NCBI GenBank assembly: GCA_021229015.1
Contig: CM037778.1
Location: forward strand, 88,298,145-88,362,144
Source of the DNA: Solen grandis
Lineage: Eukaryota > Mollusca > Bivalvia > Adapedonta > Solenidae
Direction: 5' to 3'
DNA: 64,000 bases
In this document: positions 1-64,000 of the stretch, piece after piece
How positions within the stretch are numbered: position 1 is the first letter of the stretch
Layout: each line of letters starts with the position of its first letter
Made by a program: the position numbers and the translations under genes
Notes under the pieces: model-generated
Database searches by the model: none
What the model saw: only the letters and a program-made list of their open reading frames with translations
Told to the model about the DNA's origin: nothing

Positions 1-227
1 GTACATCAAATGATTACATGGTATATCTACAGGGGATGTGTACATTAAATGATTACATGGTATATCTACAGTGGATGTGTACATTAAATGATTACATGGT
101 ATATCTACAGGGGATGTGTACATCAAATGATTTCATGGTATATCTACAGGGGATGTGTACATTATATGATTACATGGTATATCTACAGAGGATGTGTACC
201 TTAAGTGATTACATGGTATATCTACAG

Positions 228-243
<16 letters not shown>
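1..243 (+). repeat. 39-bp minisatellite abutting HINT exon
   Basis: About 6.2 tandem copies of a 39-bp unit, each containing tatatctacag followed by gggatgtgtacat. The array probably continues to the left of the window. The unit is 13 codons long without a stop, so the array stays open in the frame of the following HINT exon. Each unit carries a CTACAG that resembles a splice acceptor (AG at 31-32, 70-71, 109-110, 148-149, 187-188 and 226-227). It most likely forms the end of an intron, with the last AG used as acceptor. Confidence 0.9.
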
Positions 244-7864
<7,621 letters not shown>

Positions 7865-13796: not shown

Positions 13797-21399
<7,603 letters not shown>

Positions 21400-21454
21400 C
21401 TTGAGAAGGTAGAAATTGGCAGATAAATTAAAAGAAGTCGCTAATTATGTTGTT

Positions 21455-21530
21455 GAGGTTCCGGAAGTAGTCTTCTTCTCGTGACTTGCAAAAACCGGTG
21501 ACGTAGTAAGCACTTCCGGTATGAATGGAA
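21455..21530 (-). promoter_or_regulatory. Probable V-ATPase E promoter: ETS pair and CRE-like motif
   Basis: Just upstream of the V-ATPase E start (minus strand), CCGGAAGT at 21461-21468 and its inverse ACTTCCGG at 21512-21519 are consensus ETS sites. TGACGTAG at 21499-21506 is close to a CRE/ATF site. No TATA box is obvious. This arrangement is typical of housekeeping promoters, but the transcription start is not established. Confidence 0.5.
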
Positions 21531-23094
21531 CGAAACGGAACTAGAAATAACCTACTCGCTGCAGTAAGTTTGTAAACTGATAGCTTATTATGCTTTGTTG
21601 CCCTTTCAGTGAAGAAAAATGTTCACTTGAATATAAGAATCTGTTAGTTGCTTAAAGTAATTTGATTTTCCTCTTATTAGATTCCCTAAAACTTATCCCC
21701 CCCGCAAAAAAGTAAAAAAATCTCCATTCCCAAAGTTTCAAATCAAAGCACTGAAGTTCTGTGTGTCTCAGCGAAAGAGTGTATTACGAGCTTAAATGAA
21801 ATAAAGAAAGCTTGATGTTTTAGATTTGCATCCTTTAAATTGAGATATGCATATTGATATAAAACTTATAAACTGTAGGCAAGAGAAACAAGGAGGGTAA
21901 ATGTGGCAATGTGCTAAATGTTAGCAGTCCACGTATTGAAACAAATGGTGTGTTCATCTTTCCTTGTAATGACCTTGTTAATGCAAGGTTAAAGCAGGTT
22001 TATAGCATTGTTTATTTGTTTTCGTTTTTTGGCATTGTTTGAAAATTTGATCCACATATATTAAATTCACTTTGATAAACAAAAGAAATCTGACAATCCT
22101 GTTCTCTCATCGCTATCAACGCTTTGATTTGTACTCGGTATCTTATCACAGTCTCTATTTATAGATTGAAGTAATTATGCAAATGTCAGTGGCTCGTTAG
22201 TTAACTTTGGATAGTGGATATATACAGGTCTTGGTCATTTTAAAGTGTAACATATATCTGATGGCGATAGTGTGAAGTGATTATAAGTATGTTACAATGA
22301 TTTATATCGGACTTCAAGCTTTCTACATGGGTTATTGTAACACCATAAAATGACCGAAACCTTTATATTTTTATCCAAAATTGTATACGAGCCACCTTTG
22401 AATCAAAACAAACTATATTCCTCTGCATGGTAAACTGAAAGTTATGCAACATCATAGAGAAATGTGTTTATGCTTTTATGCCACAGACAATTATTTTGAC
22501 CTGTTAATATATTTATTTTTTAAACAAAATTGATAATTCAGCACTTTTATTTAATCTCAGCATACTCTTTGTCGTAAAGATGTGTTAAATCGTTCAATCA
22601 TTTTTACCTAATTGAGAGGTTCTTCGTTTTTCAAAGTCAAGAATCGAATGCTCAGAAAGTAGATATTATAGTTGTGAGTAACTATCACACAGTGACACAC
22701 AACAAAAAACCAAGTCAGCTCTTCCCTTATTAATTAATATTCCTCCAAAAATATTAATGATGTCCATGATGTTGTTTTACTTGGGTACCCATGGGTTAGG
22801 TAGAAACAGGTCTCCCCATAGTCAGTGAAGCTCAAGGGTCAAATTGTTCCAAAATTGTAGAAAGAGCAATATTTCTAGTATTTTGTGGATCTTTTCTATC
22901 TTATTTTAAAGTAGATTCCTGACAATTTATTTTCAAGGGTCAATGAGCACCATTTCTGGAATTTCAAGGGTGTCCACTAAAACCCTGACTCACAAGTCAA
23001 AGGAGAGCCCTGAGAAAATTGCCAGTACCCTGGTACAGAATCATTACCCATTATCCTCATTTTCATATTTTCTTAATAACATAATTATATGGTG
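21531..23094. other. Intergenic region left of the assembly gap
   Basis: AT-rich sequence between the V-ATPase E promoter and the gap. The short open stretch at 22943-23094 has no recognised homology. I saw no repeat family, RNA gene or convincing exon, although an upstream exon of the NLR-like gene could be here or in the gap. Confidence 0.5.
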
Positions 23095-23194
23095 NNNNNN
23101 NNNNNNNNNNNNNNNNNNNNNNNNNNNNNNNNNNNNNNNNNNNNNNNNNNNNNNNNNNNNNNNNNNNNNNNNNNNNNNNNNNNNNNNNNNNNNN
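23095..23194. other. Assembly gap (100 N)
   Basis: Exactly 100 consecutive N, the conventional placeholder for a scaffold join of unknown size. Sequence to its right is the middle of a HINE-like element, so the missing sequence probably includes that element's 5' part. Confidence 0.99.
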
Positions 23195-23605
23195 TTCATT
23201 TTGAATAATACATTTTAAAAAACTAGGTCACCAGGTCAAATCTTAGAAAAACCTTGTGAACACCTTAGAGATTACAGTTTTAGACTAACCTTAATGTAAC
23301 TTGGTCAGAATGTTTGTTTACATCAAATCAATTGGGCAAAAAGGGAAAAAGGTGACCAGGGAAAATTTTAGAAAAATCTTGTGAACACACTTGAGGCCTA
23401 CATTTTTTCCCAGTCTTCATTAAACTTGATATGAATGATGACTGCATGAATTCCCAGTTGAGTGCAAATTCAGGTAGGATCAAAATGTAGGCCACTTAGT
23501 CAAATGTTAGAAAAACACTTTAGATGCCAGATTTTTTGTCATTTTGCCTAACACAGCCATCTTAATCAGGTGAGCGACACAGGGCCATCTTGGCCCTCTT
23601 GTTTT
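23195..23605 (+). mobile_element. HINE/pearl-like element, copy E (3' part, truncated by gap)
   Basis: Contains internal units with 'aggtcaaatcttagaaaaa' and 'aacttggtcagaatgtttgt'. It ends CAGGTGAGCGACACAGGGCC then ATCTTGGCCCTCTTGTT. It lies immediately upstream of the NLR-like exon. Confidence 0.8.
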
Positions 23606-23646
23606 TTTTTTCAGTATTGTATATCTTTTAATAGCTTCATTTGAAC

Positions 23647-26600
23647 ATGTTTAATCTACTTTCAGAACTGAAGAACCATCTGATAGATACCTACATACCT
23701 CAGTTACAGCCAGCCACACTACCAGAGGTTGACAGATTGTATGTACGGCCATGTATGAAAATAGTGACAGATAAAAAAGAGGGCAGTAATGGCAACACTG
23801 ATATAGACGATGATAGTGATAGCGATTCATCCATTGTTTCCGAAATAGAAGATGAAGGTACAAATATTAACAATGTTTTCTACCAAGACGAGACACAGTT
23901 TAGTCGGATCTACATCTCGGGAGATGCAGGGCATGGAAAGACTGCACTGTGTAAAATGCTGGTTATGGCCTGGTGTCAGGAACATTCTGGTAAAAAGATC
24001 AATACGTATATCCCTGGTGATTTCTTGACAGTCATGAAGAAGTTCAACTTTCTATTCTACATCCCTTTAAGGAATATCAGGAAGCAGTGGAGTATCAGTA
24101 AAATTATCATGAAGCTGTATTTTGAGGATCAAAATTTCCTAAATATGTTTATAAAAAATGAGTGTGACAAAAGCTCATGTCTTGTAATATTGGACGGTTT
24201 AGATGAATGGGTGACTCCTATAGACTATGACACTCCCATGCATACAACACATGGCCTGCTGGACCTGAGTCATTTCACAAAATATACAATCCTCACCACC
24301 ACCCGACCGTGGAAGCTAGAAGTATTAAGACTCGGGCCGCTGGAGATGGATAGGCAAGTTCAGCTTAAAGGTATTGATAGGTTGGCATCATATATATATA
24401 TAGAGAACATGGTAGATCTGCTGAATAAGGAGAAAAAGGTCGGGAAGGGCAGTAAAGACTTTGTACAACACTTAAAGGAAAAAAAACTGACTCATTTTAG
24501 GAAAATTCCCATCCTACTAAAACAGTTGATAATGTTGTGGCACCATGATGAGAAAGAAATTACTGGAACGTCACAAGTCCATCTTTACAGTGTTATGATA
24601 AACCATCTGTTGAAGGATGCACGGGAAAGAAATAAAAAGAAGTCATTATCAGAAGGAAATACCCAAGAGTCAGAACTCCCCTTGTGCCTAAAAGAAAAAC
24701 AGTACTGCAAGATTCATAAGAGTCTACTTCTTTTCCTGACACATCTTGCCTTTACATCAGCATTTAAAGAACAACTTGTTTTTGACCATGTAGAAACAGA
24801 ACTTCAAAATTTGACTGGAAGTGACATAAATTCCTGCTTAACAGCAGGTTTGTTGTGCCAGGAAATTTATGCAAGTACTGTTGATGATGAAAAGAAAAAA
24901 CTTTCATTCCTCCACAAAACCTTTCAGGACTTCCTGGCAGCTGTTTACCTGGTCATGAATCCTGAGTCTGCACAGCTGCCCGAAACATGCAACACCTTGG
25001 AGAAAATTCTTGACATGTGTTCTCTGTTTATTTTTGTGAGTGGTATGGACTCCAAAATCATGACATCATTATCACATCAAATATGGAACATCATGATGAA
25101 TGATGAGGAATTGAAGAAATTCATCAATGACGAAGACTACATGAGTCACTTGAAATCAATACAAGACCTGCTATGTAAGTGTGCTAGGGAGGGTAAGGAG
25201 AATGGACAACCATCACCATACTGTCATCTGGAGGCTGTTGTTATTGATGATTATACATTGCGCGGTACTGACTGGGAGACTCTACAACTTTTAATTAGTA
25301 CTAATATGCCACATATAAAATATAGATGTGTAAATATCTCTATAGTTCTAGATAAGTTTCCAGATGACGTCTTCAATTGCCTCGTGATTCTTGTGTCTAA
25401 ATGCCAGCATATGAGTCTAGCCTTAAATTGGAATTTGTCCCAGGACAAGGAAGACCAGTTGTACAAAGCATTGTATGACAACAGGTCACTATCATCACTG
25501 GAACTGAAGAAGTCAATATGTGAACCATTCTGTAGATATTTATACAGTGACAATGTGACCACACTTGATGTATTAACCATCATAGATGTGGAATTCAAAA
25601 GTCATACAGACTGCCAGAGGTTCATGACAGGTGTGGGGAGGGCAACACAGCTGAAGACGCTAATGTTGAACTTAAATGATAATTATGATAGAGAGTTCAA
25701 TGATTTGAAAGAGTTTTATCTTGACCTGTCTCACTGTTCACAGTTACAGAAACTATCTCTACGGATGTGTGGTTTAATTCAGGTTACAGTCAACACAGCG
25801 TTACTCACACATTTTCAGGCATATAAAACATTTTTATGCTTTGTTACACCCCCACATGTCCATGCCAGTATGGAGACGCGAGAGTCGAAGGGTATCAAAG
25901 ATCCACATTCTCTAGATGAGATAGTCAGCATCCTGCCCACTGGTAGAGTGGAAGAGTTTTCCTGCCATCTGGACCTGTCTCACTGTTCACAGCTAAGGAA
26001 TCTTACTGTGGAGGAATGTGCTTTTACTAAGGTTACAATCAACACAACATCACTCACATCGTGTAAGGTCCAAGATACACCTGTATACTTTGTTCCACAC
26101 CCACATAATAACATCAGGATAGATGAACTGAAATTGGAGAAAATCAGAGATTCATGTTATCTGGACAATATTGTCACCATCTTGCCTCACCTGACTCAGT
26201 TATCAGACCTGGTTCTGAAAACCATTATTGGAAAAAAGGAGGGGTGTTCCCATCATCTGGACCTGTCTCATTGTTCACAGCTAAGGAATCTTACTGTAGA
26301 GGACTGTGATATTACTAAGGTTACAATCAACACAACATCACTCAAATTGTGTAAGGTCAAAGGTACACCTGTATACTTTGTTCCACACACACATGCCAAG
26401 ACCTGGCAACTGACACTGGAGTTGAGATATATAAGAGATCTACATTCTCTAGATGAGATAGTCACCATCCAGCCCTACCTGACTCAGTTATCATGCCTGA
26501 TTCTGAACAACATTACTCGAAAAGAGGATGGGTGTTCCTGTCATCTGGACCTGTCTCACTGTTCACAACTATCTAACCTATCTCTAGAGGACTGTAATAT

Positions 26601-29091
26601 TACAAAGGTTACAATCAACACAACATCACTCGAATTGTGTAAGGTCCAAGGTACACCTGTATACTTTGTTCCACACACACATGCCTTGACCTGGCAACTG
26701 ACACTGGAGTTGAAGAATATAAGAGATCCACATTCTCTAGATGAGATAGTCACCATCCTGCCCTACCTGACTCAGTTATCATGCCTGGTTCTGAACAACA
26801 TTACTGGAGGACAGGAGGGGTGTTCCCGTCATCTGGACCTGTCTCAATGTTCACAGCTAATGAAACTAAATCTTAAACACTGTAATTTTACTAAGGTTAC
26901 AATCAACAAAACAACACTCACATTGTGTAAGGTCCAAGATACACCTGTATACTTTGTTCCACACCCACATGTCCAGACCAGGATACGGACACTGGAGTTG
27001 AAGAATATAAGCGATCCACATTCTCTAGATGAGATAGTCACCATCCAGTCCTACCTGACTCAGTTATCATGCCTGATTCTGAACAACATTACTGGAAAAG
27101 AGGATGGGTGTTCCTGTCATCTGGACCTGTCTCACTGTTCACAGCTATCTAACCTATCTCTAGAGGACTGTGATATTACTAAGGTTACAATCAACACAAC
27201 ATCACTCAAATTGTGTAAGGTCCAAGGTACACCTGTATACTTTGTTCCACACACACATGCCTTGACCTGGCAACTGGAACTGGAGTTGAAGAATATAAGC
27301 GATCCACATTCTCTAGATAAGATAGTCACCATCCTGCCCTACCTGACTCAGTTATCATGCCTGGTTCTGAACAACATTACTGTAGGAGAGGAGGGGTGTT
27401 CCCGTCATCTGGACCTGTCTCAATGTTCACAGCTAAAGGAACTAAATCTTAAACACTGTAATTTTACTAAGGTTACAATCAACAAAACATCACTCATATT
27501 GTGTAAGGTCCAAGGTACACCTGTATATTTTGTTCCACACCCACATGACCAGACCAGGATACGGACACTGGAGTTGAAGAATATAAGAGATCCACATTCT
27601 CTAGATGAGATAGTCACCATCCAGCCCTACCTGACTCAGTTATCATGCCTGATTCTGAACAACATTACTGGAAAAGAGGATGGGTGTTCCTGTCATCTGG
27701 ACCTGTCTCACTGTTCACAGCTAAGGAATCTTACTGTAGAGGACTGTGATATTACTAAGGTTACAATCAACAAAACATCACTCACATTGTGTAAGGTCCA
27801 AGGTACACCTGTATACTTTGTCCCACACACACATGCCTTGACCTGGCAACTGACACTGGAGTTGAAGAATATAAGAGATCCACATTCTCTAGATGAGATA
27901 GTCACGATCCTGCCCTATCGGACTCAGTTATCATGCCTGGTTCTGAACAACATAACTGGAGGAGAGGAGGGGTGTTCCCATCATCTGGACCTGTCTCATT
28001 GTTCACAGCTAAGGAATCTTACTGTAGAGGGCTGTGATATTACTAAGGTTACAATCAACAAAACATCACTCACATTGTGTAAGGTCCAAGGTACACCTGT
28101 ATACTTTGTCCCACACACACATGCCTTGACCTGGCAACTGACACTGGAGTTGAAGAATATAAGAGATCCACATTCTCTAGATGAGATAGTCACCATTCTG
28201 CCCTACCTGACTCAGTTATCATGCCTGGTTCTGAACAACATAACTGGAGGAGAGGAGGGGAGTTCCCGTCATCTAGACCTGTCTCAATGTTCACAGCTAA
28301 AGGAACTAAATCTTGAACACTGTAATTTTACTAAGGTTACAATCAACAAAACATCACTCACATTGTGTAAGGTCCAAGGTACACCTGTATTCTTTGTTCC
28401 ACACCCACATGTCAAGACCAGGATACGGACACTGGAGTTGAAGAATATAAGAGATCCACATTCTCTAGATGAGATAGTCACCATCCTGCCTCACCTGACT
28501 CATTTATCACGCCTGGTTCTGAACAACATTACTGGAGGAGGGGATGGGTGTTCCCGTCATCTGGACCTGTCTCACTGTTCACAGCTAAGGTACTTATTTC
28601 TAGAGGACTGTGATAATACTAAGGTTACAATCAACACAACATCACTCACATTGTGTAAGGTCCAAGCTACACCTGTATACTTTGTTCCCCATTCACATGT
28701 CCAGACCAGTATACTGACACTGGTGTTGAAGAATATAAGCGATCCACATTCTCTAGATGAGATAGTCACCATCCTGCCCTACCTGACTCAGTTATCACGC
28801 CTGGTTCTGCATTGTTTAGACTTTGGTGATAGATGTGCTTGTCTGTCTCCGGAATCAAAATATCTGAAAACTGTGAAGTTATATAGGGTTGTTATGACAG
28901 ATAGGGCAATGATCCAGTTTCTTGACTCTGTTCTCAACATTAACCAAAAGGTGGCCTGTGTGGTTGAAGGTAGACTTAATGAAGCAGTTGAGACACTCAT
29001 CAACTCCAGGTTTGTTGTGACAGGGAGAGACTTGGACGGGCTACACTTCCACAGCCAGCCGACAGCTTCCCCAGACAGGAAGTCCTCATAG
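23647..29091 (+). CDS. NACHT-domain NLR-like protein with 96-residue LRR-like repeats
   Basis: A single open stretch of about 1,814 codons from the ATG at 23647 to TAG at 29089-29091 (residues are numbered from the in-frame TTG at 23641). An acidic linker (about residues 50-72) precedes a NACHT ATPase: Walker A GDAGHGKTALCK at 94-105 and Walker B LVILDGLDEW at 181-190. A helical part follows, with FLHKTFQDFLAAVYLV near 423-438, a motif usual in NLRs. From residue 694 to about 1736 there are leucine/cysteine-rich repeats, mostly 96 residues long, and then a ~80-residue unique tail. NLRs sense ligands through the LRR part and assemble through NACHT. The true start is uncertain: CTACTTTCAG ending at 23665 is a good splice acceptor, so an upstream exon with an effector domain may be missing because of the nearby gap. 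No transmembrane segment seen. The specific paralogue is not assigned. Confidence 0.88.
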   Translation: MFNLLSELKNHLIDTYIPQLQPATLPEVDRLYVRPCMKIVTDKKEGSNGNTDIDDDSDSDSSIVSEIEDEGTNINNVFYQDETQFSRIYISGDAGHGKTALCKMLVMAWCQEHSGKKINTYIPGDFLTVMKKFNFLFYIPLRNIRKQWSISKIIMKLYFEDQNFLNMFIKNECDKSSCLVILDGLDEWVTPIDYDTPMHTTHGLLDLSHFTKYTILTTTRPWKLEVLRLGPLEMDRQVQLKGIDRLASYIYIENMVDLLNKEKKVGKGSKDFVQHLKEKKLTHFRKIPILLKQLIMLWHHDEKEITGTSQVHLYSVMINHLLKDARERNKKKSLSEGNTQESELPLCLKEKQYCKIHKSLLLFLTHLAFTSAFKEQLVFDHVETELQNLTGSDINSCLTAGLLCQEIYASTVDDEKKKLSFLHKTFQDFLAAVYLVMNPESAQLPETCNTLEKILDMCSLFIFVSGMDSKIMTSLSHQIWNIMMNDEELKKFINDEDYMSHLKSIQDLLCKCAREGKENGQPSPYCHLEAVVIDDYTLRGTDWETLQLLISTNMPHIKYRCVNISIVLDKFPDDVFNCLVILVSKCQHMSLALNWNLSQDKEDQLYKALYDNRSLSSLELKKSICEPFCRYLYSDNVTTLDVLTIIDVEFKSHTDCQRFMTGVGRATQLKTLMLNLNDNYDREFNDLKEFYLDLSHCSQLQKLSLRMCGLIQVTVNTALLTHFQAYKTFLCFVTPPHVHASMETRESKGIKDPHSLDEIVSILPTGRVEEFSCHLDLSHCSQLRNLTVEECAFTKVTINTTSLTSCKVQDTPVYFVPHPHNNIRIDELKLEKIRDSCYLDNIVTILPHLTQLSDLVLKTIIGKKEGCSHHLDLSHCSQLRNLTVEDCDITKVTINTTSLKLCKVKGTPVYFVPHTHAKTWQLTLELRYIRDLHSLDEIVTIQPYLTQLSCLILNNITRKEDGCSCHLDLSHCSQLSNLSLEDCNITKVTINTTSLELCKVQGTPVYFVPHTHALTWQLTLELKNIRDPHSLDEIVTILPYLTQLSCLVLNNITGGQEGCSRHLDLSQCSQLMKLNLKHCNFTKVTINKTTLTLCKVQDTPVYFVPHPHVQTRIRTLELKNISDPHSLDEIVTIQSYLTQLSCLILNNITGKEDGCSCHLDLSHCSQLSNLSLEDCDITKVTINTTSLKLCKVQGTPVYFVPHTHALTWQLELELKNISDPHSLDKIVTILPYLTQLSCLVLNNITVGEEGCSRHLDLSQCSQLKELNLKHCNFTKVTINKTSLILCKVQGTPVYFVPHPHDQTRIRTLELKNIRDPHSLDEIVTIQPYLTQLSCLILNNITGKEDGCSCHLDLSHCSQLRNLTVEDCDITKVTINKTSLTLCKVQGTPVYFVPHTHALTWQLTLELKNIRDPHSLDEIVTILPYRTQLSCLVLNNITGGEEGCSHHLDLSHCSQLRNLTVEGCDITKVTINKTSLTLCKVQGTPVYFVPHTHALTWQLTLELKNIRDPHSLDEIVTILPYLTQLSCLVLNNITGGEEGSSRHLDLSQCSQLKELNLEHCNFTKVTINKTSLTLCKVQGTPVFFVPHPHVKTRIRTLELKNIRDPHSLDEIVTILPHLTHLSRLVLNNITGGGDGCSRHLDLSHCSQLRYLFLEDCDNTKVTINTTSLTLCKVQATPVYFVPHSHVQTSILTLVLKNISDPHSLDEIVTILPYLTQLSRLVLHCLDFGDRCACLSPESKYLKTVKLYRVVMTDRAMIQFLDSVLNINQKVACVVEGRLNEAVETLINSRFVVTGRDLDGLHFHSQPTASPDRKSS
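25720..28830 (+). repeat. 288-bp tandem repeat array inside the NLR-like exon
   Basis: Starts of the LDLS(H/Q)CSQL motif lie at 25720, 25969, 26257, 26545, 26833, 27121, 27409, 27697, 27985, 28273 and 28561. After the first (249-bp) unit the spacing is exactly 288 bp. Each unit reads LDLSHCSQL, an LRR-like second strand, TKVTIN, LCKVQGTPVYFVPH, LELKNI, DPHSLDEIVTI, LTQLSCLVLNNIT. Two variants alternate: a THALTWQL form (units from 26545, 27121, 27697, 27985) and a PHPHVQTRIR form (26833, 27409, 28273), giving a 576-bp higher-order period over part of the array. Confidence 0.95.
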
Positions 29092-30308: not shown

Positions 30309-33300
30309 ATGAAAGTAAGGACAAGGTCATACATTGAAAGTCCAGTTTTAGACAGGCCGGGATGTATGAAAAGTGTGGTGCCATACTCACAACAAATTGT
30401 AAGTTCACTTGAAAATCTTTTTTTCATTATATTGTTGTTGTTGTTTTTTCAAAATTGTTTTAAAACTAATGAAATATTATTTGATACTTGTATATTTATA
30501 TAGAAATGTGACATATTGGTATTATCAAGGCCTTCTCTATAGTGCCTCAGTTAGAATGGAACCACTGCTAGGGTGGTTATGAGAGAATCTTACCCCAGCT
30601 GGGGTTCAAACCATACAACGTTCATGTATCTGAATCATTGTCTACTGTCACAGGACCACCATGACGGAATGTCAGTATAATGATATGGTAAACAATAACA
30701 ACAGAGACCTCCATTTGTTGTAGATGGGGCAATATGTAATAATTATTGAACACTCCAAATTCAAAACTAATTGTTAATTATGCTGATATATTTTGCTGAT
30801 GGATATTGATCAATAGGTAGCCAATTTTGCAAATATCTGTTGTTTATACAGTATTACAGCCTTTATATATTAATTTACATGTTCATTTATATGCTCCTTG
30901 TGTGACGGAACATTATGGGAACATCTGTGGAGAGCTTGTGTGGGGCAGTGTCCATTATATATTTCTCTGTCAAACGTAGCAAGATCATCCACCATCAAAC
31001 CTAGTCACAATGATTAATAGCAGGTCTGATAAATGTGAAGAAAGTCTCACTCAGTTATGAGTTGAATCTGGCGCTTTAATTAACCAAAAGTACAGAATTG
31101 AAAATGTCCCTTTATAACTTGGCATATGTAGATCTATCATCAGCAAACTTGGTCAGAGTGTATATTGTATAGTAAGAAATGAGCCCAATGACCCAGATAG
31201 TACCACAGTTGTGACACTTTAAGTTACAATAATGCACATTAACATATCATTATTGTATGATAATTACCAAACTTTGTAAGAATATCCATTTGTAAACACA
31301 TCAAAGTTTGACAATCAGTGAATACTTAAAAGGAATTTCAGACCTTTTTGGCACCTGAAGCCCTGTCTCTATACAGTGTTCTTATGCACAATGGATATCA
31401 AAGTTTGCTTACTTTCATTTTTAATGTAAAAATGCATACAAACAATATAGTCAAACCTGTCTTAAATGGCCAGTCTAGGTTAAATGCTGCTTAAAGGGGT
31501 CACTGTTTGGGACAGGTTGACTGCTTGCTACAGGTGACCACTAACACAGGCTCTATTGTTTTGTGTTGCAGCAGGTGGTGATGAGGCAGTTTAGTTACCA
31601 TGACTGTGAAGATACTGATAAAAAAGTCAAGGTTAATATCAGGTCATGTGTCACAGCAGGCCAGGGCATCACAGGTCAGGCTGACCTTGTAGTCTTGGCA
31701 GGTATGTGTACAGGCACATTTATACATATGAGTTTCAGAGTTTTCTAGAACAACTGATTTCACCTAGCACCAGTGAATTTCTTGAAACCTTATTCATTAC
31801 CTGTGCTGATAATGATCTATGTATGTGTCGCCACAACGATACTTGCATGATTATAGAAAATCATAAAAGAAACATATTTATGGAAAAAAAAATTGGGGGT
31901 CGGCTTCCTACTTTTTAGATCAACTGAGCACAACGTGCTAAAGGTGAGCTTTTGTGATGGCCCTTCGTCCGGCGTGCGTCGTCAACAATTTGGCTTGTTA
32001 ACACTCTAGATGCCATATTTTAGGCCAATCTTCATGAAACTTGGTTAGAATGTTTGTCTCCATAAAATCTTGGACAAGTTCGAAATTGGGTTATGTGGGG
32101 TCAAAAAGTAGGTGATGAGGTCAAATCTTAGAAAATCCTTGTTAACACACTAGAGGCCACATTTTTGGCCCAATATTCAGGAAACTTGGTCAGAACGTTT
32201 GTCTCCATAAAATCTTGGCAAAGTTCGAATTAGGCAAAGTTCGAATTAGGGTCATGTGGGGTCAAAAAGTAGGTCACGAGGTCAAATCGTATAAAAACCT
32301 TATTAACATACTAAAGGCGACATTTTTGGCCTAATCTTCATGAAACTTGGTTGAAATGTCTGTTTCAATAATATCTCGGACAAGTTTAAATTTGGGCCAT
32401 GTGGGGTCAAAAAGTAGGTCAATATGAAAAATCCAACATATGTTGCGCATTTATAATCAGGTGAGCAATTCAGGGCCATTGTGGCCCTCTTGTTGAGTTA
32501 TCTGCCACTGAAGGTGATACTTTAGCACTTTGAGGCCATATTCAAGGGCAGATAAAACGCCAACCCCCATCTTTTCTTCCATGTTTCCTTTATGATTCTC
32601 TGTAATCATGCAAAGTTTTAAAATATTATATTAGACAGTTTTCCTTCTTTGTCTATATAGAAAATGTAGCAAACTGTAGCAAACGTCCTTAACCTGGTTT
32701 TCCACAGGAAATATAAAGTTATTTGTTTGGAAAAAAATGGTTGGTGGGAGGAGTCAACTTTCTTTGTCCTGACCATAACTTTGTCAAACAATACGATATT
32801 TTAAGATAAATTAGATGTTCAACATGATGAGGTGCAGGCACATGACCCAGATCTGTAGCTCTAAAGCCAAGGTCATGTTTTGAGGTTTAAGGTAAAAAAG
32901 TAGGTCTTGTCCTGGTTCTAACTTCCTTATGAATTGAAGGATTTTAAAATGAATTGCAGCTTCTAAATGATGAAACTGGTCCATGAAAGAGATCCCTAGC
33001 TCAAATGTCATGGTAACACTTTTAGGCTGAAAGCTATAAATGGGAAAAAATTTAAATGTTAAAATTAAAACTTTAAATGATCTTATTCAATTGTTAATAG
33101 GAAGCCACTGTTGCCGAATGGTTTGAATGTCTGCCCAGAAAACAGGAGGACACAGGTACGATACCAGTCTGGCATAAAAATTGTACTGGTAAAGCACCTT
33201 GTATTTGGCGCTCATTTTATAAAAGTCAGTGTTGCCATGTCCCACGGAAAATGCAAGGAAATTGATTTTTTCTCAAGGTCAGGGATATGTCGGGAAATTT

Positions 33301-39184: not shown

Positions 39185-42100
39185 TACATGCGGAGACTCA
39201 ACCCATTACAACAGGGAAGATTAGATTTTTTTCTTATAACCAATAATATGATGACCTATTTAAGGAACTGTGATATTGATATAAGTTATAAATCAGACCA
39301 TTCAATTATATACATGGAAATGTGCTTTTCTTCAGTCAGTCATGGAAAAGGCTTGTGGAAATTCAATAATGCCTTACTACATGATATCAACTATATAAAG
39401 TGCATTAACAAGAAAATTAATGAAATTATACAGCAATATTGTGTACCTGTTTATAATTTTGATAATATTGAACAAATTGATAAAGAGCACATAGAATTTG
39501 TGATAAATGATCAACTATTTTTAGAAACATTATTAATGGAAATCCGTGGAAAAACAATATCTTATTCAAGCTATAAAGCAAAAGAACGAAACAATAAAGA
39601 AAAAGAATTAATTGAAAAAATATTGAAATTAGAAGCAAATTTAACAGCTGAAAATGAAAACAAACTTTTATGTTTACAAAATTTTAATTAAAAAAAAAAA
39701 TAGAGGTTCACTTATAAGATCAAGAGCACGGTGGATTGAACATGGAGAGAAAGTCACTAGTTATTTCTGTAATCTTGAAAAAATATATAATGAAAATAGA
39801 ACATTAACATTTATTGAAAAAGAGGATGGTACAATTATATCTGATAGTAAAAACATTCTGCAAGAAGCTCAATTCTTTTATGAACATTTATATAGTCAGT
39901 CAAACACAAAAGACTCTAATATACAAAAAGAAATGGAAGGATTAGATGCTAGGAAACTAGATAGTGATGAGGCTGAGATGCTAGAGGGTTTTTTAACATA
40001 TAAAGAGGTATCTGATACACTAAAAAGTATGAAAAATGACAAAAGTCCTGGACCTGATGGTTTCAGTTCAAATTTTTTTAAGGTTTTCTGGAAGAAACTT
40101 GGATATTTTGTAGTTAGAGCTTTAAATGATGCTTTTAAATCAAACTCTTTCTCGAGAAATATTAAGATGGGTATCATTACATGCATACCTAAGGATAACA
40201 AGCCAAAGCATTTTTTAAAAAACTTAAGGCCAATAACTCTTTTGAATGTATTATATAAAATTGCATCGGGCACAATCGCTAATAGGTTTAAAAAAGTATT
40301 AAGTTCACTTATATCTACAGATCAAACGGGCTTTATTAAAGGTCGATTCATAGGTGACAACACACGACTGCTGTATGATGTAATGAAATATACTGAAGAT
40401 AATAATATACCAGGATTAGTAATGTTGATTGATTTTGAAAAAGCCTTTGATTCAGTTTCTTTTAAATTCATTGAACAAACCCTAACATTCTTTAATTTTG
40501 GCGATTCTTTTCGGAAATGGATTAGGATGTTTTTATATAATACTGAAACAAGTGTTCAAATAAATGGTTTTTGTCTGAATTCTTTAAAGTAAATAGAGGA
40601 TGCAGGCAAGGAGATCCTATCTCATCATATATCTTTATTCTTTGTGCTGAAATTTTAGCCATTAAGATAAGAAATAGTAAAAATATTAAAGGAATAAAGA
40701 TTGATGGAAATGAATATAAACTTTCACAATTTGCAGACGACACATATTTGTTATTAGATGGTACAGAAAATACTTTAAATTCAGCTTTAGACTTACTTAA
40801 TGAATTTTTTCTGTTGTCTGGATTACGAGCAAATTACGATAAAACAAAAGTAGTTTGGATTGGTTCATTAAAATATAGTGCACATTCAATAAAAACAAGA
40901 TGGAAATTAAATTGGGGAGATACACAATTCAAATTATTAGGATTGCTATTTGATGTTGATTTGTCTAAGATGGAAACTTTAAACTTTAATTCTAAATTGT
41001 TGAGAATTAAAACATACATTAGTAATTGGAAAAAAAGAAAGTTGACCCCAATAGGAAAAATTACTGTTATCAAGGCTCTTTTGCTTCCACTGTTGACACA
41101 TTTGTTTATTAGTTTACCTACACCAAGCACAGACTTCTTTAAGACATTAAATAATATATTATATGATTTCATATGGGATGGAAAAAGTAGAATAAAAAAA
41201 CTGATTCTTACAAAAAAGTATGAAAATGGTGGTTTAAACATGATTGATATTTACAGTTATGAACGTAGTCTCAAAATAAAATGGTTGAGAAAATATTGTA
41301 GTGACAGTCCTAGTAAATGTTATATATTGTTAAGATCTTTGTTTGATATAGACAAACTGTTTAACTTGGGGAAGTTATATTGTGTAAACATTATAGACAA
41401 AATTTCAAATAAATTTTGGATTGATGTTGTCACATCATATATGTACTATATGGACAAAGTGTGTATTGATGATATATACAAATTTTTACATATGCCATTA
41501 TTCTATAATGATTGTTTATTTAATATTAAGAATCATGTCTTTTTACCCAAACTCTATAATCGAGGATTCAGATTCGTTAAAGATTTAATTGATATAAATG
41601 GAAACTTTGTTGATATTGAATACTTAAATAATATTACAGAAACAAAAATAAATTACATGAACTTTTATAGTTTAAAATCTGCTATATTCAACTATGCCAA
41701 GAAAAAGAAAATACAACTTAATAATTTTCCTGTTATTCTGTTTCAGAATCCCCAAAACAATGTGTACATAAATCCTATTATTACTTGTACTGATATGAAC
41801 AAGTATGTTTACAATGAATTGTCAAAAAATACAGAAATTCCTACCAGTAAAATTAAATGGATTGAAAAGTTACATAAATTAGATATAAACTGGGAAGCTA
41901 TTTACACTTACACCTTTAAATGTACCAAAGATACTTACTTACAGTGGTTGCAAACAAGAATAATTCATAGAATACTAGGTACAAATTCCCTTCTTATAAA
42001 ATGAAAATAAAAAGAGATAATGTATGTACTTTTTGTAAAAGTGAGGAAGAGACAATTATCCATCTTTTTTGGGAATGTGAAAAAATAAAACCAATAATAG

Positions 42101-42500
42101 AATATTTGATTGATAAAATAAAAGATTTTGAACCATCAATAAACATTGACAGTTCTTTTGTGATATTAGGATCTGGAGAAACAGACAACAAATATGATTT
42201 AGTGTTTTTACTCATGAAAAAATTTATTTACTTAAGTAAGATGAAAAATGTGATACCAACCATTTATAGCTTTAAACAAGTCTTAAAATTAGAAATAGAG
42301 ATTTTTAAAAGTTCTAAGTACACCGAAGATGCAAGTCTAGGATGGACAATTGTAAGCTCAGTTTTATGTAATCATGTTTAATTGATATAAGTGATTTTAT
42401 ATAACACAGATAAAAAAAATGATAAATGGATTGTCATATAATGTATGGAATATATATCAAAAAGACTTTTTATAAGTTATGCATGGGAATGAATGTTGGA
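39185..42500 (+). mobile_element. 5'-truncated LINE (L1/Tx1-like non-LTR retrotransposon)
   Basis: The sequence starts inside the C-terminal part of an apurinic-like endonuclease (RRLNPLQQGRLDFFLI and then KSDHS), so the promoter and most of the endonuclease are missing, as is usual for truncated target-primed insertions. The coding part ends at 42381. An AT-rich 3' UTR follows; its end is only approximate and no clear poly(A) or target duplication was found. Confidence 0.85.
39188..42381 (+). pseudogene. LINE ORF2: endonuclease C-terminus, reverse transcriptase, Cys-His tail
   Basis: Four open blocks in different frames (39188-39691, about 39690-40590, 40590-42004, 42005-42381) together form one degraded polyprotein. 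In order: the endonuclease end (RLDFFLI, SDHS); the linker RARWIEHGEKVTSYF; the reverse transcriptase with SPGPDGF, LRPITLLN, GFIKGRFIGDNTRLL, motif A LIDFEKAFDSV, RGCRQGDPISSYIF and the catalytic FADD box; and the tail CTFCKSEEETIIHLFWECEK, a CCHC-like motif found at the end of L1/Tx1-type ORF2 proteins. The breaks fall near an A10 run at 39689-39698, near 40585-40592 and near 42000. Catalytic motifs are intact, so it is either a young copy with few lesions or the breaks are homopolymer errors in the assembly. Confidence 0.92.
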
Positions 42501-63210: not shown

Positions 63211-63410
63211 TTTGTATTTGGGGATATGATAGAAAGATTTGTAAACCAACATACAAATAACTGTAAAGTTACACAGTTGTTTTTATTTGTAACTACACCA
63301 ATATGATGCACACCACTGTCACAACAAATACCATTATATATCTTTGCAACATTACAGACGTCACATATCATGCCAGTGTAGGTTAGACTGTTGCTGGAAT
63401 TAAACTTTAT

Positions 63411-64000
63411 GATATTATCAGCCATACTTGTTATTACGTGATATTATCAGCCATACTTGTTATTACGTGATATTATCAGCTATACTTGTTATTACGTTTA
63501 TGATATTATCAACAATACTTGTTATTACGTGATATTATCAGCCATACTTGTTATTACGTGATATTATCAGCCATACTTGTTATTACGTGATATTATCAAC
63601 CATACTTGTTATTACGTGATATTATCAGTCATACTTGTTATTACGTGATATTATCAGCCATACTAGTTATTACATGATATTATCAGCCATACTTATTATT
63701 ACGTGATATTATCAGCCATACTTGTTATTACGTGATATTATCAGCCATACTTGTCATTACGTGATATTATCAGCCATACTTGTTATTACGTGATATTATC
63801 AGCCATACTTGTTATTACGTGATATTATCAGCCATACTTGTTATTACGTGATATTATTAACCATACTTGTTATTACGTGATATTATCAACCATACTTGTT
63901 ATTACGTGATATTATCAGCCATACTTGTTATTACGTGATATTATCAACCATACTTGTTATTACGTGATATTATCAGCCATACTTGTTATTACGTTTATGA
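63411..64000. repeat. 29-bp minisatellite running off the right edge
   Basis: About 20 tandem copies of a 29-bp unit (gatattatcagccatacttg then ttattacgt) with single-base variants (cagcc, caacc, cagtc). Some units carry a 4-base TTAT insertion, for example near 63497 and at the end, hinting at larger-scale copying. The array is still in progress at the last base. Confidence 0.97.

What the first reader, a model, noticed from the sequence alone, without database searches (positions are those of the whole stretch)
25720..28830. Higher-order 288/576-bp repeat array in an NLR-like receptor
After the first unit the period is exactly 288 bp, and two unit types alternate over part of the array, giving a 576-bp super-period. 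Units starting at 27697 and 27985 differ at only about five residues. This points to recent unequal exchange or gene conversion within the ligand-binding region of a presumed innate receptor. The unit combines LRR-like strands with a conserved CKVQGTPVYFVPH segment that I do not recognise from standard LRR classes.
Basis: partly seen in the sequence, partly recalled or inferred. Interest (0 to 1): 0.8.

Follow-up and report, generated by a model that had tools for sequence, protein, structure and literature searches.

The report
Clam NLR with shuffled LRR cassettes
A gene, probably from a clam, for a likely immune sensor carries ten near-identical 96-amino-acid cassettes in a row, which appear to be copied and swapped while the residues on their presumed binding face change under selection.

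Summary
One exon (23666-29091, +) encodes a NACHT domain, a divergent 83-residue unit and ten 96-residue units in 288-bp register. The A/B alternation is real but local. The array is one of a dispersed family: 46 places by hand count.

The interpretation needs correcting. CKVQGTPVYFVPH is no extra element: the unit is best read as four leucine-rich repeats (20+22+27+27 residues), and that segment is the second. Two Mercenaria NACHT proteins carry the unit once before the same C-cap, so the array is most simply an intragenic amplification.

New result: among 32 closest unit pairs (134 units, 25 loci), the 20 exposed codons of the four LxxLxLxx strands show 117.2 non-synonymous and 5.8 synonymous changes (ratio of rates 4.6, p 7e-6); core (0.48) and remaining codons (0.77) do not exceed 1. 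A frozen mask on four new loci agrees. Internal units tend to cluster by gene, final units by position.

Best reading: an NLR whose LRR sensor diversifies by cassette turnover plus positive selection, as in fungal NACHT-WD40 receptors. Binding, N-terminal domain and copy-number variation are untested.

The parts
23666..29091 (+). 3' exon with stop codon, about 1808 codons: NACHT region, LRR cassette array, C-cap
   Evidence: Open frame 23635-29091; acceptor CAG at 23663-23665 followed by AACTGAAG, conserved in L011 and in changed form in L018, L022, L024, L026. Exon start is inferred; no transcript seen.
23905..24381 (+). NACHT domain
   Evidence: PF05729 E 3.9e-11, residues 89-247 of the frame from 23641
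23920..23943 (+). Walker A (GDAGHGKT)
   Evidence: Position; motif name recalled
24178..24210 (+). Walker B region (CLVILDGLDEW)
   Evidence: Position; motif name recalled
24907..24942 (+). NLR winged-helix-like motif (FLHKTFQDFLAA)
   Evidence: Position; lies in the stretch (residues 366-443) weakly matching NLRP3 structures, E 0.0066; motif name recalled
25717..25965 (+). Unit 0, divergent 83-residue first unit
   Evidence: shorter first units matched also in L009, L011, L012, L014, L016, L019
25966..28845 (+). Units 1-10, ten 96-residue four-LRR cassettes, start 25966 + 288k
26542..27693 (+). Units 3-6: duplicated A-B dimer (576 bp)
   Evidence: 3/5 96.5%, 4/6 96.9% DNA identity
27694..28269 (+). 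Units 7 and 8: single-unit duplication, 97.2% identical
28810..29088 (+). C-terminal cap, present once in paralogs and in two or more bivalve relatives
   Evidence: 75-97% DNA identity in all 20 paralog stretches but L022 (28791-29091); relatives
25628..26707 (+). Tract nearly identical to a paralog on contig C13 (0-1 mismatch per 72 bases)
   Evidence: L009 6464-7543
23095..23194 (.). 100-N run upstream of the exon

Best explanation
This is the 3' exon of a bivalve NLR (NACHT-LRR protein) whose C-terminal sensor is a solenoid of 96-residue cassettes, each of four leucine-rich repeats: two short (20 and 22 residues) and two longer (27 and 27 residues). Shown by computation: cassette anatomy, spread over the genome, one-cassette relatives, and an excess of amino-acid changes confined to the exposed strand residues. 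Inferred: cassettes are gained, lost and exchanged by unequal crossing-over and gene conversion inside one exon, so that any whole number keeps frame and solenoid; substitutions on the concave face change what is bound; binding relieves autoinhibition of the NACHT ATPase, which oligomerises and triggers an N-terminal effector not seen here. The most likely ligands are fast-evolving microbial or other non-self molecules.
For: NACHT domain. Four LxxLxLxx frames at 10, 30, 52, 79. Positive selection at exposed codons: 27 pairs, dN/dS 3.18, core 0.42, rest 0.75, no other rotation of the mask reaches the count; frozen-mask holdout, 8 pairs, exposed dN over all-codon dS 5.0 (bootstrap 2.7-10.4), again no other rotation; pooled 32 pairs, p 7e-6, single-change codons 84 N and 2 S. 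The NACHT-to-array block has pooled pN/pS 0.72 in five closest gene pairs. Turnover: nearest unit in the same locus for 67 of 118 internal but 1 of 16 final units; 15 of 16 final units nearest to another gene's final unit. Near-identical tract of about 1.1 kb between contigs C2 and C13. One unit plus cap in Mercenaria P0007 and P0002. LRR fold matches.
Against: Both models are of low confidence (pLDDT 55.7 and 59.4); Foldseek with the three-unit model finds nothing at E <= 0.001. No Pfam LRR model passes, while a pentapeptide model passes on the whole protein. All-codon dN/dS in the first set is 1.23 with bootstrap 0.96-1.79. In the holdout, exposed N against exposed S alone is not significant (p 0.31) and the core ratio is 1.02. 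The window's own three closest pairs carry few changes (exposed 8 N, 0 S). One NACHT-region pair (L012/L014) also exceeds 1 (2.22). No N-terminal effector domain was found. No expression, binding or population data.
Confidence: 0.72

Rival explanations
1. Neutral concerted evolution: the array is homogenised by exchange and its remaining variation is relaxed drift, without selection for new binding.
For: Exchange is evident; all-codon dN/dS is near 1 (1.23, bootstrap 0.96-1.79).
Against: Relaxation cannot raise non-synonymous above synonymous rates at 20 positions set by the LRR motif while core codons stay below 1 in the main set (0.42; 0.48 pooled). Synonymous changes are not raised at exposed codons in the pooled set (pS 0.016 against 0.022 overall), which speaks against local hypermutation.
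Confidence: 0.12
2. Real protein array, but a different job: self or allorecognition, or an intracellular scaffold, rather than pathogen sensing.
For: [quoted passage not shown] Nothing here names a ligand.
Against: No positive evidence; NACHT expansions in pearl oyster are discussed as immune by their authors (passages of PMC9646362), also without a functional test there.
Confidence: 0.2
3. Assembly artefact: unit number or order is wrong in the assembly.
For: A paralog's array (L009) contains a 100-N gap, and 100-N runs occur in L011, L022, L028 and 0.5 kb upstream of this exon. Several paralogs are broken over frames.
Against: No N in this array, one open frame of about 1808 codons, and the same cassette anatomy in 24 other loci. 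A 2.9-kb array is shorter than typical long reads (recalled; read type unknown).
Confidence: 0.08
4. The first third of the unit is a pentapeptide-like beta-helix rather than LRR, so the unit is a hybrid fold.
For: PF00805 passes its cut-off on the whole protein (24.5 against 20.2 bits, no stretch alone) and PF13599 recurs below its cut-off in all four proteins scanned. Hydrophobic residues recur every 5-10 positions from 10 to 35.
Against: Structure matches listed are LRR proteins, not pentapeptide proteins, and hypervariable sites form LxxLxLxx strands at 10-17 and 30-37 while the frame at 20-28 is conserved. The models are weak, so this is not excluded.
Confidence: 0.15

Closest known systems
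Fungal NWD/HNWD receptors with high internal repeat conservation (Podospora; passages of PMC4986451 and PMC12222747)
   Same: NACHT receptor; tandem repeats highly alike within a gene; clustering by gene with some exchange between paralogs; positive selection at a few fixed positions per repeat
   Different: WD40 (also ANK, TPR) repeats instead of LRRs, and no LRR was found in fungal NLRs; repeat-number polymorphism shown there, untested here; internal protein identity there about 85% or more, here 81% over units 2-9
Bivalve NACHT families: Mercenaria, Ruditapes and Dreissena proteins, Corbicula (passages of PMC8298618), pearl oyster (passages of PMC9646362)
   Same: Homologous NACHT region (23-32% identity); two Mercenaria proteins have the unit once plus the cap
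   Different: No series of this cassette seen in the 14 relatives retrieved; N-terminal DUF4559 found there in 7 of 14 by the precomputed domains, not found here
Zebrafish NLR-B30.2 family (passages of PMC4852459)
   Same: Large dispersed NACHT-LRR family shaped by gene conversion and positive selection; one LRR type occurs once and hardly varies while others vary in number; one group has extensively duplicated C-terminal LRRs
   Different: There selection is seen in the B30.2 domain and the authors think the LRRs unlikely to recognise ligands specifically
Plant NLR LRR domains (recalled; papers only seen as listing)
   Same: Diversifying selection on the x residues of xxLxLxx
   Different: NB-ARC rather than NACHT; LRRs usually diverged within a gene (recalled)
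LRR super-motifs: STT of TLR7 family and small proteoglycans (passages of PMC1899181); nested 'IRREKO' LRR (passages of PMC2946307)
   Same: Short and long LRRs combined in a higher-order unit; nested 10-residue period
   Different: Here two short plus two longer repeats, 96 residues, near-identical copies; IRREKO is described almost only from bacteria

Membership tests
NLR (NACHT-LRR receptor) | NACHT domain | tested here: met
   PF05729, 43.5 bits, cut-off 26.7
NLR (NACHT-LRR receptor) | C-terminal LRR solenoid | tested here: met
   Motif frames and substitution pattern; structure matches from low-confidence models. Against: no Pfam LRR model passes
NLR (NACHT-LRR receptor) | N-terminal effector or adaptor domain | tested here: inconclusive
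   None found by Pfam in 14041-23640 + strand or by tblastn with relatives' N-termini; a 100-N run lies upstream and earlier exons are unknown
NLR (NACHT-LRR receptor) | Ligand-induced oligomerisation and immune signalling | not testable with these tools
   Needs experiment
High-internal-conservation NLR (fungal HNWD-like regime) | Over 85% identity between repeats over at least 100 residues | tested here: not met
   Units 2-9 mean protein identity 81.1%; single pairs reach 91.7-95.8%
High-internal-conservation NLR (fungal HNWD-like regime) | Concerted evolution within and between genes | tested here: met
   68 of 134 nearest units in the same locus, shuffled mean 6.4; tract shared between contigs
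High-internal-conservation NLR (fungal HNWD-like regime) | Positive selection at presumed binding positions | tested here: met
High-internal-conservation NLR (fungal HNWD-like regime) | Repeat-number polymorphism among individuals | not testable with these tools
   One assembly only; unit number differs between paralogs
Leucine-rich repeat | LxxLxLxx segments spaced 20-30 residues | tested here: met
   Frames at 10, 30, 52, 79; spacing 20, 22, 27, 27
IRREKO LRR class | 21-residue repeat with nested 10- and 11-residue units and LDL | tested here: inconclusive
   Nested 10-residue frames at 10, 20, 30, but no run of 21-residue repeats was found or sought
Pentapeptide repeats | Pfam match on its own stretch | tested here: not met
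   0 stretches pass alone; whole-protein score of PF00805 passes and fails for three units; PF13599 fails in both
DUF4559-NACHT bivalve proteins | N-terminal DUF4559 | tested here: inconclusive
   Not found near the exon; the genome-wide search did not complete

The most novel reading that the evidence does not exclude
An animal NLR family that builds its LRR sensor from exchangeable four-LRR cassettes within one exon, amplified from a single ancestral cassette, with unit number and order varying between individuals and the concave face under strong diversifying selection: a germline cassette-shuffling recognition system, convergent with fungal HNWD receptors and recalling lamprey variable lymphocyte receptors in logic (the last comparison from memory).
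Probability: 0.5. Interest if true: 0.78.

Novelty: new variant of a known kind. Interest (0 to 1): 0.62.

Why it matters
How bivalves, which lack lymphocyte receptors, diversify intracellular recognition is open. This family makes one answer testable: in-frame cassette exchange plus selection on defined residues. It names 20 positions per cassette to genotype or mutate. The regime is documented for fungal NACHT receptors with other repeat types. The papers listed by my nine searches include none whose title or abstract start describes it for an animal NACHT-LRR protein; several lists were capped (15 of 88, 12 of 20, 10 of 112) and the library lacks most subscription journals, so this is not proof that it is unpublished.

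Tried and rejected
Alternation as a whole-array super-period: not supported by permutation. DUF4559 N-terminus beside the exon: not found by tblastn in the window or L009-L028 (E 0.01) or with L029-L036 added (E 1; only rows at E 0.039 or worse, the P0006 rows set aside because that query still held its NACHT region). Pfam scan of the + strand 14041-23640 and of 9 kb more upstream of L011 and L014: nothing credible, one DUF3584 row below its cut-off. Protein database searches with the array: none at E <= 0.001 among 7989 and 7994 scored candidates; this does not show absence, since candidates must share exact 5-residue words. PDB sequence search with a three-unit profile: one row, a peptidase at E 0.2. 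Pfam rows for LSM, Peptidase_M48, Flavoprotein and others are taken as chance from summed repeats: no stretch passes alone, although LSM and Peptidase_M48 exceed their whole-protein cut-offs in L014. Telomere: 10 kb ending 339 bases before the contig end hold one TTAGGG and one CCCTAA, so no telomeric array was seen there. Region dN/dS stopped with a script error after four pairs and was redone with another region definition. Rows dropped: 63 of 163 unit hits in the first set (partial, gapped or with a stop); 34 of 41 unit hits were kept in the holdout (41 is my count of the listed rows). The 24 paralog stretches were chosen because they matched, so that they hold the unit is no test. A unit phylogeny was planned but not run; nearest-neighbour counts stand in for it.

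Full report
CHECK. TRF finds 25959-28809, period 288, 9.9 copies, 0% indels. The array lies in one open frame, 23635-29091. A splice acceptor (CAG before AACTGAAG) shared with L011 and, in changed form, with L018, L022, L024 and L026 suggests that the exon starts at 23666. The units are one of 83 residues at 25717 and ten of 96 from 25966. The alternation reflects a duplicated dimer (units 3-4 and 5-6), and units 7 and 8 are a single-unit duplication. Over units 2-9 it is not significant (5132 of 40320 orders), over units 3-7, chosen afterwards, 2 of 120 orders reach it. Type boundaries also fall inside units: unit 2 has a type-A first half and a type-B second half.

WHAT IT IS. Before the array lies a NACHT domain. 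Fourteen relatives of residues 1-690 were found: six named as Mercenaria, one Ruditapes, four Dreissena, three unnamed. Seven of the 14 carry DUF4559 by precomputed domains; I rescanned six and found it in four. The window is therefore most likely from a bivalve (inference; the genome has 1.32 Gb in 811 contigs). Two array units gave 204 matches with 150 of 543 candidates scored, so a lower bound; the listed rows make 46 separate places by my hand count, on 18 large contigs plus C497. I fetched 24 of these besides the window, chosen because they matched. Where four or more full-length units lie in one frame, they are spaced by 96 residues, or by 191 where a unit was left out; single units of 95 occur. 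Frames hold up to 13 unit matches (L032). Several arrays are more homogeneous than this one, so the finding is a sample of a family, not a singular locus. Some paralogs are split over frames (for example L012, L018, L021, L022), by decay or by assembly error.

SELECTION. I took mutual-nearest unit pairs as contrasts and counted changes by the Nei-Gojobori method. First set, 27 pairs (two identical) from 100 units: 20 exposed codons have 103.2 N and 7.8 S changes (dN/dS 3.18), 16 core codons 0.42, 60 other codons 0.75, all codons 1.23 (bootstrap 0.96-1.79); no other rotation of the exposed mask along the unit reaches the count. Using all-codon dS, the exposed ratio is 3.07 within loci (13 pairs), 3.19 between loci (14) and 3.33 without the window (21). 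The three pairs wholly inside the window are few: exposed 8 N and 0 S, all codons 20 N and 7 S. Because I had seen per-codon counts before fixing the mask, I froze it and tested four new loci: 34 units, 8 pairs, exposed dN over all-codon dS 5.0 (2.7-10.4), no other rotation reaching the count, core 1.02, rest 0.96; exposed N against exposed S alone gives p 0.31. Pooled, 32 pairs from 134 units: exposed 117.2 N and 5.8 S (p 7e-6), core ratio 0.48, rest 0.77, all codons 1.37 (p 0.044); codons with one changed base are 84 N and 2 S at exposed sites. The NACHT-to-array block has pooled pN/pS 0.72 in five closest gene pairs and median dN/dS 0.46 over 91 pairs of 14 genes; one pair, L012/L014, stands at 2.22.

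TURNOVER. The nearest unit lies in the same locus for 68 of 134 units, against a mean of 6.4 and a maximum of 20 in 1000 label shuffles: 67 of 118 internal but 1 of 16 final units. Fifteen of 16 final units are nearest to another gene's final unit. So the middle of the array turns over while its end stays in place. A second gene copy in L009 (contig C13) shares units 1 and 2 at 99.3% and 100%, its other compared units lying at 93-95%. From window 25628 to 26707 it differs at 0-1 base per 72, while five of the six 72-base pieces just before differ at 2-9 and one at 24, probably at the single gap that BLAST reports. That suggests recent exchange between contigs, with the caution that a 100-N gap sits in that paralog's array.

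ORIGIN. A profile of final unit plus cap matches once, along its unit and into the cap, in Mercenaria P0007 (E 2.4e-15) and P0002 (E 7.6e-10). P0001 and P0009 have two partial matches each, near the unit's end and the cap; other relatives match weakly or in part, and the printed alignments were cut after the first ones. The unit profile alone reaches at best E 2.4e-5 in the 14 relatives. The simplest history is one cassette plus cap, amplified in this lineage. Dreissena P0013 shows another repeat series by eye.

COMPARISON. Fungal NWD receptors show highly alike repeats, concerted evolution and positive selection at four positions of each WD repeat; no LRR was found in fungal NLRs (passages of PMC4986451; of PMC12222747). 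Measured by the 85% threshold of that work, units 2-9 fall short (81.1% protein identity), so I claim a similar regime, not membership. In zebrafish NLRs the B30.2 domain is under positive selection and the LRRs are called not particularly variable, though one group has extensively duplicated C-terminal LRRs (passages of PMC4852459). Pearl oyster and Corbicula have large NACHT families (passages of PMC9646362 and PMC8298618).

VERDICT. The array is real and more telling than described: an LRR cassette array under diversifying selection in a large, probably bivalve, NLR family; a new variant of a known kind. Function, ligand, N-terminal domain and population variation remain inference.

Noticed in passing
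window 39185-42378 (+): Open frames that by eye look like a LINE-type retroelement with reverse transcriptase, split over overlapping frames.
   Followed up: no
window 1-362 (+): A 39-bp tandem repeat (6.2 copies, 1-240) runs in frame into a stretch that by eye resembles a HINT/HIT-family exon (name recalled).
   Followed up: no
window 63410-63994: 29-bp tandem repeat, 20 copies, at the window's right end, near the end of contig C2.
   Followed up: no
window 20224-20707, 23218-23437, 31994-32433: A dispersed repeat with 145- or 161-bp spacing lies on both sides of the gene and also in L015, L019, L027 and other paralog stretches.
   Followed up: partly
L009 7640-7739; also L011, L022, L028: 100-N runs in or near paralogous loci; the one in L009 interrupts an array, so unit counts there are unsafe.
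   Followed up: yes
P0013 (Dreissena), C-terminal part: A different repeat series of roughly 45-50 residues, by eye: possibly an independent amplification in a related NACHT protein.
   Followed up: no
L012 and L014, NACHT-to-array block: dN/dS 2.22 between these two paralogs, unlike the other four closest pairs (0.53-0.90).
   Followed up: no
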